Shown here: piece by piece, positions 31,177 to 39,918 of the stretch
How the letters are laid out: each line of letters starts with the position of its first letter
How positions within the stretch are numbered: position 1 is the stretch's first letter
Assembly: GCA_001603075.1 (NCBI GenBank)
Contig: LVBB01000080.1
Span: 113,289-154,855 of the forward strand
Reading direction: 5' to 3'
Length of the DNA: 41,567 nucleotides
DNA from: Phycisphaerales bacterium Planc_01
Lineage (GTDB): Bacteria > Planctomycetota > Phycisphaerae > Sedimentisphaerales > Anaerobacaceae
Program-made: the position numbers and the translations under genes
Notes under the pieces: generated by a model
Databases searched by the model: none
Told to the model about the DNA's origin: nothing
The model's input: only the letters and a program-made list of their open reading frames with translations

Positions 31177-32451
31177 TCAGTCTTGCGGCCGGGGGTCCGA
31201 GACGCGGCCGAGAAAGAGGATGCTGCCGGAGGTGTTGTCGCGGATCATGAAGAGGAACGGGTGATCGGCCTGGAAAACGGGCGTTCGATCCGGCATGGCC
31301 GAGGTCAGTCTCATCACCACGCCCGTCGCGGCGGCCGCTTCGGTGCCTTCCTCGTTGACGTCGACGTAGGCTTGGTGAATCACCGCCGAGATGAACAGGT
31401 CGCGCCGGCCCGTCATGCCCGAGAAGTCGGCGGCGCCGCCGAACGCCTGCCCCATGCCCATCGAGCGCAACACGCTTTCCAGACTGAACTTACTGGTCAT
31501 CTTGAACTTGGGGATCGAGACGATCACCTCCCGCTCGCGGAGGTCGTCCAGCCATCTCGCGATGTTCTCGGCGGTCAACTGCTGTTCGAGCCGCCCGATT
31601 CCGTCGGCTGCCTTCGGCAGCAGGATGACCATCGACAGCTCATCGCCAACGTACGGCAGTTGCAGCACTTGTAGATTGTCGGCCTCGGCATAGCCAAACC
31701 GGGCCTTCTGATTCATCATGGGGACCTGAACCTTGCTTGCGTCCAGCAGGGTGAAGGGGGCGTCCTGCGTCCGGTCCTCGTCGAACTGGCGGGCCCAGTT
31801 GCCTTTGAAGTAGATCGCGTTGGTGAGCACCAGCCGGGTCATCGGCCCGATGGCGCCCTGGCTGATGAGGTCCTTGATCTTGCCGTTAGTCTGCTCTTCG
31901 ACCCACGTGTTGATGGTCCGGCGGGCCTTTTCGGCAGAGGCGACGAAATCGACGTTGCGGATGCGCCCGCCATACTCGGCCTCGACGAGCCTGGCGAACG
32001 CGTCGAGGAAGGCGAAGTCCTTCTGGCCCCACAGCGCATTGGCGACCCGCAACTCATAGGCGTCCGTGCCGCCCCGCGCGTTGAGATCGTGAATGATCCG
32101 CCCGAACGCGCCGGCGAACTCCTCGGCCGTCATCGGCTTGCCGGCTACGCCCAGCTTCGCCAAGACCTGGGGCGACGTCGGGTACCACATCGCCTCGGCC
32201 ATTTGCCGCTCGGTCTCGCCCCGCGCCCCGGCGTAGGTCATCCCCAATGCCGTCGAGACACTGTAAGGCGAGAAGAACAGGTTGCCGTCGCCGGTCCGCA
32301 ACTTCTCGTAGAGGGCCAGAGCGAGCTGAGTGTTCCCATCGACCACCGCTTGGTGGGCGGCAGCCGCGATCTCGGCCTTCTCGTCGGCCGAGCCGTTGGC
32401 GGTGCAGCCGAGAACCATCATTCCGATCACTGCCGTGCTGAGCGTCTTCAT
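31177..32451 (-). CDS. Serpin-family protease inhibitor, lipoprotein
   Basis: The 424-residue product has the full serpin fold: FFSPYSVSTALGMTYAGARG near the start, LVLTNAIYFKGNWARQFDED in the middle, and the end HPFLFMIRDNTSGSILFLGR. The hinge EEGTEAAAATG (367-377) is the small-residue, Ala-rich form needed for an inhibitory serpin; counting from Glu367 as P17 puts P1-P1' at Thr383-Ser384. The N-terminus MKTLSTAVIGMMVLGCTANG has a lipobox with Cys16, so it is likely anchored on the envelope facing outward. The ATG at 32451 has GGAAGGA 7 bases upstream. Serpins trap serine or some cysteine proteases; the target is unknown. It stands alone, between a GntR-controlled operon and a divergent acetyltransferase. 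Confidence 0.96.
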   Translation of the reverse strand: MKTLSTAVIGMMVLGCTANGSADEKAEIAAAAHQAVVDGNTQLALALYEKLRTGDGNLFFSPYSVSTALGMTYAGARGETERQMAEAMWYPTSPQVLAKLGVAGKPMTAEEFAGAFGRIIHDLNARGGTDAYELRVANALWGQKDFAFLDAFARLVEAEYGGRIRNVDFVASAEKARRTINTWVEEQTNGKIKDLISQGAIGPMTRLVLTNAIYFKGNWARQFDEDRTQDAPFTLLDASKVQVPMMNQKARFGYAEADNLQVLQLPYVGDELSMVILLPKAADGIGRLEQQLTAENIARWLDDLREREVIVSIPKFKMTSKFSLESVLRSMGMGQAFGGAADFSGMTGRRDLFISAVIHQAYVDVNEEGTEAAAATGVVMRLTSAMPDRTPVFQADHPFLFMIRDNTSGSILFLGRVSDPRPQD

Positions 32452-32607
32452 CGGTCTATCCTTCCAAGAAAGAACTCTTTCCACTCGCTGTGACGGTCAT
32501 TCTACCGTTCCGGTTGACACGTGTCCGTCAAGAATTGTCCGAATCGCTTGAGCGGGGCGGAGAACGCCGCTAAGATGCCGGTCCTGGGAAAGTCAGAAAG
32601 GGCAGAC

Positions 32608-33090
32608 GTGATTCGCACCACCCATCTTGAGATCACCGGCGAGGATCAGTGGGTCCGCAGGAACCGCTGCGACATCGGCTTCGAAGTCCGCGAGTGCGTG
32701 GTCAAGCAGCCGCGTTTCAATCGGTTCCTGTACGAGTACATCGGGCAAGACTGGAAGTGGATCGCCCGTCTCGCCTGGTCGGATGATCGCTGGCGCGAAT
32801 ATGCGGCCGCCGACAACCTGCGAACGTTCGTCGCCTATCGCGAGGGTTCGCTCGTCGGCTACTACGAATTGCAGCAGCAGGGCGAGAGCGTCGAGATCCG
32901 CATCTTCGGCCTGACTCCAGAATTCCTCGGCCAGGGCCACGGTGGAGCCTTGCTCGATCATGCCGTCGAGAGCGCCTTCGCCTGGGGCGCCCGCCGCGTC
33001 TGGGTCCACACCTGTACCAACGACCACCCCCGCGCCCTCGACAACTACCTTAAGAGCGGCTTCGCAGTCTTCAAGATCGAAGAGAAATAG
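32608..33090 (+). CDS. GNAT-family N-acetyltransferase
   Basis: The product (160 residues from GTG 32608) carries the acetyl-CoA-binding segment FGLTPEFLGQGHGGALLDHA, with the Q-x-x-G-x-A motif, and the end HTCTNDHPRALDNYLKSGFA typical of GNAT proteins. A GTG start is chosen because the protein then begins IRTTHLEI, which is where members of this group usually begin, and AAAGGG lies upstream. An ATG at 32575 is a possible longer start. The substrate is unknown. It is divergent from the serpin and 136 bases before the HAD fusion gene on the same strand. Confidence 0.88.
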   Translation: MIRTTHLEITGEDQWVRRNRCDIGFEVRECVVKQPRFNRFLYEYIGQDWKWIARLAWSDDRWREYAAADNLRTFVAYREGSLVGYYELQQQGESVEIRIFGLTPEFLGQGHGGALLDHAVESAFAWGARRVWVHTCTNDHPRALDNYLKSGFAVFKIEEK

Positions 33091-33226: not shown

Positions 33227-35266
33227 TTGACGCAGTGCAGCACAAACACGGATCTGATCGTAACGGATCTTGGCGGCACGATGGTCCGGACGGACGACGC
33301 GATCCTCGCGGCGGTCCGGCAGGCGGCGACCGAACTTGGCATTCCCGACGGACATCCCGACCCGGTCTATGGCGTCTTCGGCACGAGCATCTGGCAGTAC
33401 ATTCACGCCTGGCTGCCCGACGGGCACAAGGACCGCACCGACGCCTGTCACGAGCGGTTCTGGGAGCTGTTTCCCCACGCGGTGCTCGACCAGATCGGGG
33501 CGTTCGACGGGGTCGAGGAGGCCCTTGTCGAGCTGAAGCGGCGGGGCCTTCGAGTCGCAGTGCTCAGCGGCCTGAAGATCGAGTCGATCGAGCGGATCGT
33601 TGCGACATTTCGATTTCAGGACTGGGACGCCGTGCGTTCTTCGATGCCGCTGAAGACCGCCGCCGACTCGCGCGCCGAGGGGATCAAACGCCTGGTCGAG
33701 GAATTCGGCGTCGCGCCGCAACGCACGATCTATATCGGCGACACCGACCACGACGTCCGCCAGGCCCGCCAGGCCGGCGTGCGTGCCGCCGTCGTCAAAA
33801 CCGGCGGTCAGGCCCGCAAGCATCTGCACAAGATCGAGGCCGAACAACCCGACCATCTCCTCGCCTCCTGGCCCGACCTCCTGAATGTCGTTGCCGCCTG
33901 CGTCGTCATTGTCGGGTGCCTGATGGGTCTGGCCGGATGTGCGTCGTCGGCGGGCCGCCAGGCGCGGAAGTACCTTGTGGCTCCGACTGTTCTGCCGGGC
34001 GTTGAGGCGGAAATGCAGACGGCCGGGTTCTGGATCGGCCGGCTGGCTGAGCCCGACCGCGTCATTCTCTCTGAGGATGAGATCGACGAATTGAACGACG
34101 ATATACGGACCCGCCTGCAACTGACGAAAGACATCGCCAAATTCCCACGGGAATTCGACGGGCCGGAGTTGCGTGCGATCCTGCAGTGCGAATTGGACAG
34201 CTTTCGGGCCAGGACCTTGTATGGTGCCGACGGCCGCAAGGTGGGTGAGTCGTTTTACACATCCGTGGAAGAGAGCATGCGGCTTGCCTCGATTGACGCC
34301 CGGATTCACGTGCGGTTCGCTCTGGTGGTCTGCAATGCCGACCAGAGGTTGCTGCCGACCGCCGAGGGCCTGTACGCCGAGGCGGGGGACGTCGATTTCG
34401 ACGAAGCGCAGAACAGCGCCCTGGATATCGGCACGCCCGTGGCGATCCTGCACGCGAGCGCCGACGGGCGGTGGCTCTATGCGCTGGGACCGTCCAGCGA
34501 CGGGTGGATCGAAGGGCAGAAGCTGGCGTTGTGCTCGCAGGAGCAGTTGCGGGACATGATGAACCGGCCGTTCATAACGGTCGTCCGTGCCAAGGGCGAT
34601 GTCTGTCTGGATGCGAAGCTGACCCAGCATTATGGCTTTGTCCGCATGGGATCGAAGCTCCCTCTGGCGGAGGATTCCGACGGCGATTTCGTGGCTGTGC
34701 TGTTGCCCACGCGGCGGGAGGAGGGGACTGTGCAGGTGCAAACGGGTTATCTCAAACGTCGGGAGACAGTTGCGGGGAATCTCTCGTACACACCCCGGCA
34801 CATCATCGAGCAGGCGTTCGAGATGCTCGACACGCCGTATGGCTGGGGCGGGGCCAATGGTCAGCAGGATTGTTCGCAGTTCGTGCAGGAGGTGTTCGCC
34901 ACGGTGGGCATCCAAATGCCCCGGAACTCCTCCGACCAGGCCCGGGTGGGCCGGATGCAGAAGTGTTTCGAGCCGGACGACTCCGACGAGGACAAGCTGG
35001 AAGCGGTGCTGACGCACGCGATCCCCGGCGTGACTGTTCTCCACACGAAAGGCCACGTCATGCTCTACGTGGGGGATGTGGCGGGCCGGCCCTACGCCAT
35101 CCACTGCGTCTGGGCCTATCGCGAGCCCGGCAGTGACGCCGACGTCATCCGCGTGATCAACCGCGTTGCCGTCACTGACCTGCACCTCGGCGAAGGCTCC
35201 CGCGTCGGATCGCTGTTGCGTAGACTCAAATCCATCCGGGAGATCGCGCCTGTCCCGCAGCAATAG
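33227..35266 (+). CDS. Fusion of a HAD-family phosphatase, a membrane or lipoprotein-signal segment, and an NlpC/P60 peptidase
   Basis: One uninterrupted frame of 679 residues (from TTG 33227, with GAGGTGG 5 bases upstream; GTG 33218 is the alternative). Residues 10-218 are a HAD hydrolase: nucleophile in VTDLGGTMVR (Asp14), motif II VLSG and motif IV YIGDTDHD, resembling phosphonatase-like enzymes. Residues 221-238 (VVAACVVIVGCLMGLAGC) look like the hydrophobic core and lipobox of a lipoprotein signal. The rest is a murein-peptidase-type protein: a stabilising/SH3-like region, then NlpC/P60 with Cys549 (QQDCSQFV), His610 (GHVMLYVG) and His626. No stop or separate start with a charged signal N-region is visible between the parts. 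Either a real fusion spanning the membrane, or two genes joined by loss of a stop or by a sequence error. Confidence 0.85.
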   Translation: MTQCSTNTDLIVTDLGGTMVRTDDAILAAVRQAATELGIPDGHPDPVYGVFGTSIWQYIHAWLPDGHKDRTDACHERFWELFPHAVLDQIGAFDGVEEALVELKRRGLRVAVLSGLKIESIERIVATFRFQDWDAVRSSMPLKTAADSRAEGIKRLVEEFGVAPQRTIYIGDTDHDVRQARQAGVRAAVVKTGGQARKHLHKIEAEQPDHLLASWPDLLNVVAACVVIVGCLMGLAGCASSAGRQARKYLVAPTVLPGVEAEMQTAGFWIGRLAEPDRVILSEDEIDELNDDIRTRLQLTKDIAKFPREFDGPELRAILQCELDSFRARTLYGADGRKVGESFYTSVEESMRLASIDARIHVRFALVVCNADQRLLPTAEGLYAEAGDVDFDEAQNSALDIGTPVAILHASADGRWLYALGPSSDGWIEGQKLALCSQEQLRDMMNRPFITVVRAKGDVCLDAKLTQHYGFVRMGSKLPLAEDSDGDFVAVLLPTRREEGTVQVQTGYLKRRETVAGNLSYTPRHIIEQAFEMLDTPYGWGGANGQQDCSQFVQEVFATVGIQMPRNSSDQARVGRMQKCFEPDDSDEDKLEAVLTHAIPGVTVLHTKGHVMLYVGDVAGRPYAIHCVWAYREPGSDADVIRVINRVAVTDLHLGEGSRVGSLLRRLKSIREIAPVPQQ

Positions 35267-35313: not shown

Positions 35314-35841
35314 TCACAGCCTCTTCTTCTCGAACCAGGCGAAGAGGGCCAGGCAGATCGCCCAGAACAGGGCGATGACGAGCCAGGCGCTCAGGCCCAG
35401 CGTTTCGGGCAGGCCGATGGGACCAAAGTCTTTCCAGGCCAGGACGGTCCGCTTGAAGAAGGGGTAGAGTTCCGCATAGACGGCCGCGCCGACGAGCATC
35501 CCCACGATGGCGAAGACCGCATGCCAGCGGCCCTCGCCCAGCGCCCCGACGGAGGTGCCGGGACAGAAGCCCATGACCGCCCAGCCGGCGCCGAAAAGGA
35601 CGCCGCCGAGCCCTACCGCGCCGAGGTTCATCGGCTTGTGCTTGAACGCCAGAACGTCGAAGTGCGCCAGCAGGTGCAGACCAACCATGCCGACGAGGAT
35701 CGCTGCCAGCATGAACTTCAGGATCGTCATGTCCTTCAATCGCATCGCGGCCACCTGCTTGTCAAAACGCAGCACGCGACCCTTCTGGAGCAGGAATCCG
35801 AACGCGACGCCCGTGAGTAATCCGAGGATCTGTTCATTCAT
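35314..35841 (-). CDS. YeeE/YedE-family permease, second half-size component
   Basis: A 175-residue membrane protein with about four hydrophobic segments and the family signature GFCPGTSVGALGEGR (Cys93). YeeE/YedE proteins (TsuA type) carry thiosulfate or related sulfur compounds inward, and the conserved Cys is needed for transport in studied members. The start overlaps the stop of the upstream YeeE/YedE gene by 8 bases (ATGAATGA), so the two halves are coupled and probably form one transporter. It is last in the peroxide-defence gene run. Confidence 0.92.
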   Translation of the reverse strand: MNEQILGLLTGVAFGFLLQKGRVLRFDKQVAAMRLKDMTILKFMLAAILVGMVGLHLLAHFDVLAFKHKPMNLGAVGLGGVLFGAGWAVMGFCPGTSVGALGEGRWHAVFAIVGMLVGAAVYAELYPFFKRTVLAWKDFGPIGLPETLGLSAWLVIALFWAICLALFAWFEKKRL

Positions 35842-36379
35842 GGTTCCGCCCTCCGTAGACGAGCCGGGCCACGACGATGCCCGTACCGAAGAAGAAGGCC
35901 AGCGCCACGAAGCCGCTGACGGACAGTTGCATCATGCCGCTGAGCCCGTTGCCGCTCGGGCAGCCGTCGGCCATGCGCGCACCGACCATGGCGACGATGC
36001 CACCGAGGATCGCGCCGACGGCCCGCTTGCCCACGCCGGGACCGAACCGTCGCGACCAGGTCGGAGGAACCGCCTCAGCGCGTAAGCTGCCGTCTGTCAG
36101 CGACGAGAGCAGCGCGCCGAGAAAGATCCCCACCACGAGCATGAACTGCCAGTCGACCTTGACTTTCTCCTTGGTGTAGTACTCGTTGGCGGCCACGTGC
36201 TCCTTCGCCACCGGTTTCTGGAGCAGACCGGCGGCGCGGACGAACGTCGTCGAAGCGCCGAGATAGTTGGTCTTGCCGAGTATCTTCGTCGTCGCCAAGG
36301 CCGATGCGATGGCCAGGATGCCGGTCATCGCTCCGGCTACGTAGGGGTTCCACCCCTTGTCATCCGTTCTCCACTTCAT
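35834..36379 (-). CDS. YeeE/YedE-family permease, first half-size component
   Basis: A 181-residue membrane protein with about four hydrophobic segments and ADGCPSGNGLSGMM (Cys140), the second typical YeeE/YedE cysteine motif. The ATG at 36379 is chosen because AAAGGAGG is 8 bases upstream; the extra open frame to 36487 is proline-alanine rich and overlaps the peroxiredoxin gene. It is 97 bases downstream of the peroxiredoxin, across a strong hairpin. Likely role: uptake of a sulfur compound with its coupled partner. Confidence 0.92.
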   Translation of the reverse strand: MKWRTDDKGWNPYVAGAMTGILAIASALATTKILGKTNYLGASTTFVRAAGLLQKPVAKEHVAANEYYTKEKVKVDWQFMLVVGIFLGALLSSLTDGSLRAEAVPPTWSRRFGPGVGKRAVGAILGGIVAMVGARMADGCPSGNGLSGMMQLSVSGFVALAFFFGTGIVVARLVYGGRNHE

Positions 36380-36417
36380 TTCGTGAGCCTCCTTTGCTGG
36401 CTCATGCGGGGCCGGTG

Positions 36418-36441
36418 GGGCGGCAGGGGGGGCTGCCGCCC
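36418..36441 (-). terminator. Hairpin between peroxiredoxin and YeeE/YedE genes, possible attenuator
   Basis: GGGCGGCAG (36418-36426) and CTGCCGCCC (36433-36441) form a perfect 9-base stem. No U-rich tail follows on the transcribed strand, so read-through into the permease genes is likely, with the stem perhaps setting expression ratio or mRNA stability. Confidence 0.45.
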
Positions 36442-36476
36442 GCAACGTGAGTCGTCCTTTCTCAAACACCTGGCCG

Positions 36477-37160
36477 TCAGTTTGCACCGTGCGGGCACTT
36501 CTTCAGGACCATGAACCAGTCGAGGACCTTCGTGTCGGCGGCCGGCTTCTCGACGCGGTCCTTGGCGGTGCCGCACGAGCCGGGCGGGGGCACGATCACG
36601 TCGTCACCGATCTGCCAGTTGGCCGGCGTGGCGATGCCGTGCTCGTCGCTGTGCTGCATGGCGATCAGCAGCCGCTTGACCTCGTCCATGTTCCGCCCAT
36701 TGCTCAGCGGGTAGTACAGGATCGCTCGCACGATGGCCTTGGGGTCCATGATGAATACCGCCCGCACCGCCTGCGTGCTGCTGGCAGCCGGCTGGAGCAT
36801 GCCAAAGGCCTTGGAAACCTCCATCGTCAGGTCGCTGATGACCGGGAAGTTCACCTCGATGCCCTTCATCCCTTTGTACTGGATCTTCTCCTTGATCGTC
36901 CGCAGCCAGGCGATGTGGCTGTACGTGCTGTCGATGGACAGGCCCAGCAGTTTGCAGTTGAGCTTCTCGAACTCGCCGGCCATGTTGGCAAAGGTCATGA
37001 ATTCGGTCGTGCAGACCGGCGTGAAGTCGGCCGGGTGAGAGAAGAAGATTACCCACTTGCCCTTGAAGTCCTCCGGGAAGTTGATGGGGCCCTGTGTGGT
37101 CTCTGCCTTGAATGATGGGGCCTTCTCGCCGATCAACGGCATGCGGTTCTCGTTACACAT
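36477..37160 (-). CDS. Peroxiredoxin, Prx6/archaeal-type
   Basis: The 227-residue product is an AhpC/TSA-family peroxidase. The peroxidatic site PADFTPVCTTEF gives Cys50, with the Prx6-type CTTE context. Additional cysteines at 196 and 222 near the C-terminus resemble the archaeal three-cysteine form, so a resolving Cys is possible. Length and the long C-terminal extension fit Prx6 rather than the short 2-Cys AhpC. The ATG at 37160 has AAGGAG 8 bases upstream. It lies 51 bases after katG on the same strand, so it belongs to the same peroxide-induced unit. It should reduce hydrogen peroxide or organic peroxides in the cytoplasm. Confidence 0.96.
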   Translation of the reverse strand: MCNENRMPLIGEKAPSFKAETTQGPINFPEDFKGKWVIFFSHPADFTPVCTTEFMTFANMAGEFEKLNCKLLGLSIDSTYSHIAWLRTIKEKIQYKGMKGIEVNFPVISDLTMEVSKAFGMLQPAASSTQAVRAVFIMDPKAIVRAILYYPLSNGRNMDEVKRLLIAMQHSDEHGIATPANWQIGDDVIVPPPGSCGTAKDRVEKPAADTKVLDWFMVLKKCPHGAN

Positions 37161-37211
37161 TCGTGGTGCTCCTTTCAGTTACGCATGGTTCTTTGGCTTG
37201 ATGGTTCTCAT

Positions 37212-39446
<2,235 letters not shown>

Positions 39447-39465
39447 CTATGTCTCGTGGTCGGGC

Positions 39466-39918
39466 CTATCGTTTGCCTTTCGCGCAGTTCGCACAAATCC
39501 CCCGAAGCTGTACTTGCGCCGATTCGACGCGACCGAATGACGCCACCGACCGGGGGATCGGAAGATCGTCCAAGGTCCGGCTGTAGAAGTCGTGGACCCG
39601 TCCGCACTCGGTACAGATGAAATGGTGGTGGTGCTCCATGTTGGCGTCGTAGCGGCCCCGCCCGGAGAGAATCTCGGCCTTGTGGACCAGACCCTGCTCC
39701 TCCAGGGTCGCCAGCGTGCGGTAGACCGTGTCCCGCGAGATCGCCGGCACCCGCCGGCGGACGTTCTGATAGATCGTCTCGGCGTCCGGGTGGTCCTCGG
39801 CGCCCGCCAGTTCGCGAAAGACCTCCATCCGCTGATGGGTGAGTTTGAGCCTGCCGCCCCGACACGTCTGGGCCAATCTCTCCATCCGTCGCTCGATCTC
39901 TGCTTTGGATACCGCCAT
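39466..39918 (-). CDS. perR: PerR-type peroxide-sensing repressor (Fur family)
   Basis: The 150-residue product has a Fur-type winged helix (RLKLTHQRMEVFRELAGAED, then ISRDTVYRTLATLEEQGLV) and two zinc pairs, CTEC (102, 105) and CANC (142, 145). Relative to B. subtilis PerR with an offset of six, the metal-sensing residues His43, Asp91, His97, His99 and Asp110 are all present. Asp at 110, where Fur has Glu, is the mark of PerR. It should repress this operon with iron or manganese bound and release on oxidation by peroxide. Its promoter and a PerR-like box lie just upstream. It heads the run katG-peroxiredoxin-YeeE/YedE. Confidence 0.92.
   Translation of the reverse strand: MAVSKAEIERRMERLAQTCRGGRLKLTHQRMEVFRELAGAEDHPDAETIYQNVRRRVPAISRDTVYRTLATLEEQGLVHKAEILSGRGRYDANMEHHHHFICTECGRVHDFYSRTLDDLPIPRSVASFGRVESAQVQLRGICANCAKGKR

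What the first reader, a model, noticed from the sequence alone, without database searches (positions are those of the whole stretch)
33227..35266. In-frame fusion of a HAD phosphatase to an NlpC/P60 cell-wall peptidase through a lipoprotein-like segment
Both enzymes keep their catalytic residues. The joint is a hydrophobic run ending LMGLAGC, which looks like a lipoprotein signal without its own start codon or charged N-region. A real fusion would put a phosphatase inside and a wall peptidase outside on one chain. It may instead be a recent gene joining or a sequencing indel that hides a stop and a start.
Basis: partly seen in the sequence, partly recalled or inferred. Interest (0 to 1): 0.6.

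Follow-up and report, generated by a model that had tools for sequence, protein, structure and literature searches.

The report
Conserved HAD–wall-peptidase gene fusion
In two related bacterial species, two genes that are separate in a sister species (a hydrolase expected inside the cell and a cell-wall-cutting enzyme expected outside) have merged into one intact gene, joined through what used to be the export signal of the second; it is a real evolutionary fusion and not a sequencing error, but how the joined protein is sorted is unknown.

Summary
The fusion is real. Window 33227-35266 (+) is one open frame of 679 aa: a HAD hydrolase (about 1-222), a hydrophobic segment ending LAGC-238, and a DvLysin/PnpA-type NlpC/P60 peptidase (239-679). 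The same junction is uninterrupted in a second species of the genus (G005, 86% identical protein), and purifying selection acts on both halves (omega 0.23 and 0.27), so a sequencing indel is rejected. In a sister species (G002) the genes are adjacent but separate: the HAD gene has its stop where the fusion has Cys-225, and after a short gap the peptidase has its own start, charged N-region and lipobox. In G004 they lie about 11 kb apart. The fusion thus lost the HAD stop, spacer, peptidase start and N-region, keeping hydrophobic core and lipobox. Most likely the segment is an internal export signal (HAD inside, peptidase outside), possibly still lipidated and cut at Cys-238. That sorting is inferred, not shown. 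Modest interest.

The parts
33227..35266 (+). fused gene, TTG start, 679 aa
   Evidence: open frame; a GAGGTGG stretch just upstream of the TTG, also before the TTG in G005 and G002 (Shine-Dalgarno reading by eye)
33227..33892 (+). HAD domain (residues 1-222); D14 at 33266, S114, D172, D176 kept; D+2 is Gly16
   Evidence: (HAD_2, Hydrolase), alignments, alignment of 14 sequences, coordinates
33878..33940 (+). hydrophobic joint LLNVVAACVVIVGCLMGLAGC (residues 218-238), lipobox LAGC with Cys-238 at 33938
33899..33901 (+). Cys-225 codon, at the position of the HAD stop codon (TGA) of the separate G002 gene
33941..35266 (+). peptidase part (residues 239-679 and stop): N-terminal region, SH3b, NlpC/P60 catalytic domain; C549 at 34871, H610 at 35054, H626 at 35102
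32521..33090 (+). GNAT acetyltransferase gene directly upstream on the same strand; a like gene lies upstream of the fusion in G005 (by eye)
   Evidence: (PF00583)

Best explanation
Two neighbouring genes, a HAD hydrolase and a lipoprotein-type cell-wall endopeptidase of the DvLysin/PnpA kind, were fused by loss of the HAD stop codon, the spacer, and the peptidase's start and charged N-region, while its hydrophobic core and lipobox were kept (shown by comparison with the separate genes; a deletion is the simplest way). The fused gene has been kept under purifying selection in two species (shown). Inferred: the retained hydrophobic segment, lengthened by the hydrophobic end of the HAD domain, now works as an internal signal-anchor, leaving the HAD in the cytoplasm at the membrane and the peptidase outside; the retained LAGC may still be lipidated by Lgt and cut by LspA, which would split the chain into a membrane-tethered HAD and an outer lipoprotein.
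For: Same fusion, no stop, in G005 at 86% identity. Selection: omega 0.23 (HAD) and 0.27 (peptidase) between the two fused genes. G002: HAD ends ..SWPDLVYVIAA-stop; peptidase begins with its own signal, in another frame. G004: both genes on one contig, about 11 kb apart; peptidase beside a KatG-like gene, which in the window lies a few genes downstream. Of 5 standalone relatives with a readable N-terminus, 3 have a strict lipobox (G002 LASC, G036 LTGC, G176 LAGC), G109 has SIGC and G004 none. LAGC and 18 of 19 residues of segment 218-236 are identical in G005. The segment is more hydrophobic (2.56, 2.43) than the three standalone signals measured (1.44-2.08). The own genome has LspA, Lgt and Mur-ligase matches, and this is its only NlpC/P60 match.
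Against: Topology and cleavage are untested. Charge does not favour N-in: the 24 residues before the segment have net -1 (G000) or +1 (G005), the 20 after it +3 or +1, so the positive-inside rule gives no support and in G000 points the other way. Lipoprotein signals normally start the protein; here the lipobox begins at residue 235. The low divergence of the segment rests on 20 codons. Some slackening of selection cannot be excluded: omega of the fused pair is the highest of 10 HAD pairs (0.19 on a 205-residue stretch; pairs of separate genes 0.09-0.10), and for the peptidase 0.27 lies within 0.24-0.31 for pairs among G000, G005, G001 and G002 but above the 0.18-0.19 of pairs with G004, of which G002-G004 is the only pair of surely separate genes. 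The structure model failed (mean pLDDT 32).
Confidence: 0.6

Rival explanations
1. The fusion stays whole in the cytoplasm or at its inner face: the segment is buried or a plain anchor, and the peptidase now acts on recycled muropeptides or is idle.
For: Charges do not favour export of the C-terminal part, and the charged N-region of the old signal is lost. Omega of both halves is not lower, and for the HAD half higher, than between separate genes.
Against: The segment is more hydrophobic than the three standalone signals measured; the lipobox is unchanged in both species; the peptidase is still under purifying selection with its triad intact.
Confidence: 0.22
2. Sequencing or assembly error that hides a stop and a start.
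For: The genomes are draft assemblies of many contigs, and G001's contig begins just after the joint.
Against: Two species share the junction base for base over 46 bases, with ordinary divergence on both sides; the separate state (G002) differs by a missing spacer, not by an indel.
Confidence: 0.02
3. An internal translation start makes a separate peptidase from the fused mRNA, so that the fused protein is a by-product.
For: CTG, ATC, ATT and one ATG codon occur in frame between 33800 and 33960.
Against: No in-frame GTG or TTG there; the ATG leaves 5 residues before Cys-238; no purine-rich ribosome site seen by eye before these codons.
Confidence: 0.08
4. Neutral fusion: one mRNA and protein with no joint function, kept only because each half is still needed. 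Compatible with the sorting model above.
For: No functional link between the halves is visible: G003 and G029 gave HAD-part matches and no peptidase match (75% and 87% complete), in G036, G109 and G103 the two are on different contigs, in G004 about 11 kb apart.
Against: None decisive; adjacency in G002 and fusion in two species would also fit a shared role.
Confidence: 0.5

Closest known systems
DvLysin (PDB 3m1u, Desulfovibrio vulgaris) and PnpA (6sqx, Photobacterium damselae): four-domain NlpC/P60 endopeptidases
   Same: Aligned over query 365-654 with 3m1u 118-406, E 5.9e-33, and over 329-594 with 6sqx, E 1.4e-20; Cys-His-His as in DvLysin
   Different: A HAD domain and an internal hydrophobic lipobox segment precede the peptidase here; PnpA has an ordinary signal peptide (passages). 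The c-clip domain was not recognised by Pfam.
Phosphonatase-like HAD hydrolases (TIGR03351, PhnX-like)
   Same: Best NCBIfam match, 70 bits, 2.8e-19 over 9-222; motif I without the second Asp (PhnX DxAGT, recalled)
   Different: Far below the family cut-off of 218.9 bits; not filed as a member
Standalone peptidases of the same genus, family and class (G002, G004, G036, G109, G176)
   Same: Related peptidase, 42-73% identical over the matched part; lipobox in G002, G036, G176
   Different: Own start codon and N-region, no HAD

Membership tests
DvLysin/PnpA-type NlpC/P60 endopeptidase | catalytic Cys-His-His (or Asn) | tested here: met
   C549, H610, H626; 8 of 8 aligned sequences; triads of DvLysin and PnpA from passages of PMC7860986
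DvLysin/PnpA-type NlpC/P60 endopeptidase | SH3b domains before the catalytic domain | tested here: met
   PF12913 at 386-429; alignment to 3m1u spans the stretch between it and the catalytic domain; the second SH3b is not called separately
DvLysin/PnpA-type NlpC/P60 endopeptidase | N-terminal c-clip domain | tested here: inconclusive
   no Pfam match in residues 239-365 at E up to 1; model too poor
DvLysin/PnpA-type NlpC/P60 endopeptidase | cleaves gamma-D-Glu-meso-DAP | not testable with these tools
   needs enzyme assay
HAD phosphatase (DxDxT) | nucleophile Asp, Ser/Thr of motif II, acidic pair of motif IV | tested here: met
   D14, S114, D172, D176 kept in 14 of 14 aligned sequences
HAD phosphatase (DxDxT) | second Asp of motif I | tested here: not met
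   Gly16 in 14 of 14
PhnX-like TIGR03351 | score above curated cut-off | tested here: not met
   70 against 218.9 bits
PA2803/PcrP non-catalytic HAD subfamily | loss of nucleophile Asp, motif II and motif IV residues | tested here: not met
   these residues are kept here; subfamily definition from passages of PMC12632274
Bacterial lipoprotein | lipobox with Cys after a hydrophobic stretch | tested here: met
   LAGC-238 in both fused proteins
Bacterial lipoprotein | short, positively charged region at the very N-terminus before it | tested here: not met
   lipobox begins at residue 235; net charge of the 24 residues before the segment -1 or +1
Bacterial lipoprotein | Lgt and LspA in the genome | tested here: met
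Bacterial lipoprotein | lipidation and cleavage at the Cys | not testable with these tools
   needs an experiment

The most novel reading that the evidence does not exclude
A natural self-splitting polyprotein: an internal lipoprotein signal, captured by gene fusion, is used by Sec, Lgt and LspA to make from one chain a membrane-tethered cytoplasmic HAD hydrolase and an outer, lipid-anchored wall endopeptidase in fixed 1:1 ratio.
Probability: 0.3. Interest if true: 0.6.

Novelty: new variant of a known kind. Interest (0 to 1): 0.35.

Why it matters
It shows a gene fusion with its earlier states still around: separate and distant, separate and adjacent, and fused forms coexist within one genus. 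Because the joint is a former lipoprotein signal, it poses a clean test of whether Sec, Lgt and LspA can use a lipobox some 235 residues into a protein, after a cytoplasmic-type domain. If they cannot, it shows an exported wall enzyme drawn into the cytoplasm by a deletion.

Tried and rejected
Sequencing or assembly error: rejected by G005. Exact deletion endpoints: a short CCTG match at both ends was considered, but the G002 sequence does not align with the joint well enough to place the endpoints, so it is not claimed. A promoter in the G002 spacer, suspected by eye, was not reported by the scan (0 found). Unusual conservation at the joint: its identical run of 46 bases is only the fifth longest in the gene, so no overlapping signal is claimed. 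Structure prediction: mean pLDDT 32.2, pTM 0.22, from 3 sequences, unusable; no fold search was run. The genome-contig scan gave two loci with the HAD part only. Wider searches found no third fusion: 6 genomes of the genus, 61 relatives, 89 of the family (17), 161 of the order (24), 397 of the class (51), 392 of the phylum (63), each with the own genome included; these sets overlap, the last two are samples, and only the best 7, 2 and 3 candidates per genome were scored. G176's long open frame looked like another fusion but is a standalone gene whose frame happens to be open over the end of its neighbour. The N-termini of the weaker peptidase matches (G204, G309, G328, G340, G649) were not examined. 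Literature: held 0 papers with all terms; one search held 265 with at least two of four terms, of which I saw 15 titles, none on such a fusion; (and 43) used 'NlpC P60' with a space, which may miss the form with a slash. So absence from print is weakly tested. sought internal lipoboxes and joined signals; their listings (4, 6 of 26, and 2 titles) showed none that I recognised; I opened none of these.

Full report
The observation. Window 33227-35266 (+) is a single open frame from TTG to TAG without internal stop. The 679-residue product has HAD_2 at 12-190, SH3_6 at 386-429 and NLPC_P60 at 536-616, all above Pfam's cut-offs. Between the two enzymes, residues 218-238 read LLNVVAACVVIVGCLMGLAGC, which holds the most hydrophobic 19-residue stretch of the protein. 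The gene starts after a GAGGTGG stretch that is also present in G005 and G002.

Is it an error? No. Of the 6 genomes of the genus (own included), G000 and G005 carry the fusion in one frame. The two proteins are 86% identical and share the joint base for base over a run of 46 bases. Omega between them is 0.23 for the HAD part and 0.27 for the peptidase part. Of the other four, G002 has the two genes separate and adjacent; G004 has both on one contig about 11 kb apart; G003 matches only with the HAD part (75% complete); G001's contig starts at residue 249, so its state is unknown, and no close HAD relative was found in it. No further fusion appeared among 61 relatives, 89 family, 161 order, 397 class or 392 phylum genomes; these sets overlap, the last two are samples, and in the last three only a few candidates per genome were scored.

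How it arose. In G002 the HAD ends SWPDLVYVIAA-stop, where the fusion has SWPDLLNVVAAC. The G002 peptidase then has its own signal, MEATVEMSTPRRGVSWFASCAVLMACLASC, in another frame. The 12 separate HAD sequences of the alignment end within about ten residues of this point (some may be cut by a contig end), so the HAD domain of the fusion is complete. The fusion lacks the stop, the spacer, the start and the charged N-region, and keeps a hydrophobic core and lipobox. The upstream serpin and GntR genes are shared by G000, G005 and G002; a KatG-like gene lies beside the peptidase in G004 and a few genes downstream in the window. A likely order of events is: genes apart, brought adjacent, then fused by a small deletion. 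The exact endpoints cannot be placed.

The two enzymes. The peptidase part matches DvLysin (3m1u, 2.6e-33) and PnpA (6sqx, 6.8e-21). [quoted passage not shown] C549, H610 and H626 correspond and are kept in 8 of 8 aligned sequences. It is the only NlpC/P60 match in its genome. The HAD part keeps D14, S114, D172 and D176 but has Gly at the second Asp position of motif I, in 14 of 14 aligned sequences. Its best NCBIfam match is the PhnX-like family, far below cut-off. Phosphonatases also lack that Asp (recalled). It is not like the non-catalytic PA2803 subfamily, which has lost residues kept here (passages of PMC12632274). Its substrate is unknown, and it may not be a phosphatase.

Sorting. Of 5 standalone relatives of the peptidase with a readable N-terminus, G002, G036 and G176 have a strict lipobox, G109 has SIGC, and G004 has no lipobox Cys. 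The fusion keeps LAGC in both species. The genome has Lgt and LspA and Mur ligases. The simplest reading is an internal signal-anchor with the peptidase outside, perhaps still lipidated and cut. Against this, charges around the segment do not favour that orientation, and nothing here tests export. Selection gives no clear answer: omega of the peptidase in the fused pair (0.272) lies within the 0.244-0.310 of the other pairs among G000, G005, G001 and G002, but is above the 0.178-0.189 of the pairs with G004; for the HAD (205 residues) the fused pair has the highest of 10 values, 0.186, against 0.094-0.103 for pairs of separate genes. So both halves are still constrained, perhaps somewhat less than before. 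The structure model was unusable.

Verdict. A genuine gene fusion, limited to one genus as far as searched, with an unusual joint. Its domain combination was not found elsewhere in the genomes searched, and there is no evidence yet of a joint function. Interest 0.35.

Noticed in passing
31177-32484 (-): Serpin (PF00079, 2.1e-125) whose start MKTLSTAVIGMMVLGC looks by eye like a lipoprotein signal; conserved upstream of the HAD gene in G005 and G002.
   Followed up: partly
35314-39918 (-): Two small membrane proteins that look like YeeE/YedE (by eye), then peroxiredoxin, a catalase-peroxidase-like gene and a Fur-family gene: an apparent oxidative-stress cluster downstream of the fusion.
   Followed up: partly
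HAD sequences (G000, G002-G005, G029, G036, G082, G103-G107, G109): A HAD family of this order with DLGGT in place of DxDxT in 13 of 14 aligned sequences and DIGGV in the other (G082); no function assigned by the searches made here.
   Followed up: partly
L033:2799-4913 (-): G005's fused protein runs 25 residues longer at the C-terminus than the window's.
   Followed up: no
35102-35107: His-626 is followed by Cys in G000, G005 and G001 but by Asp in the other 5 of 8 aligned sequences.
   Followed up: no
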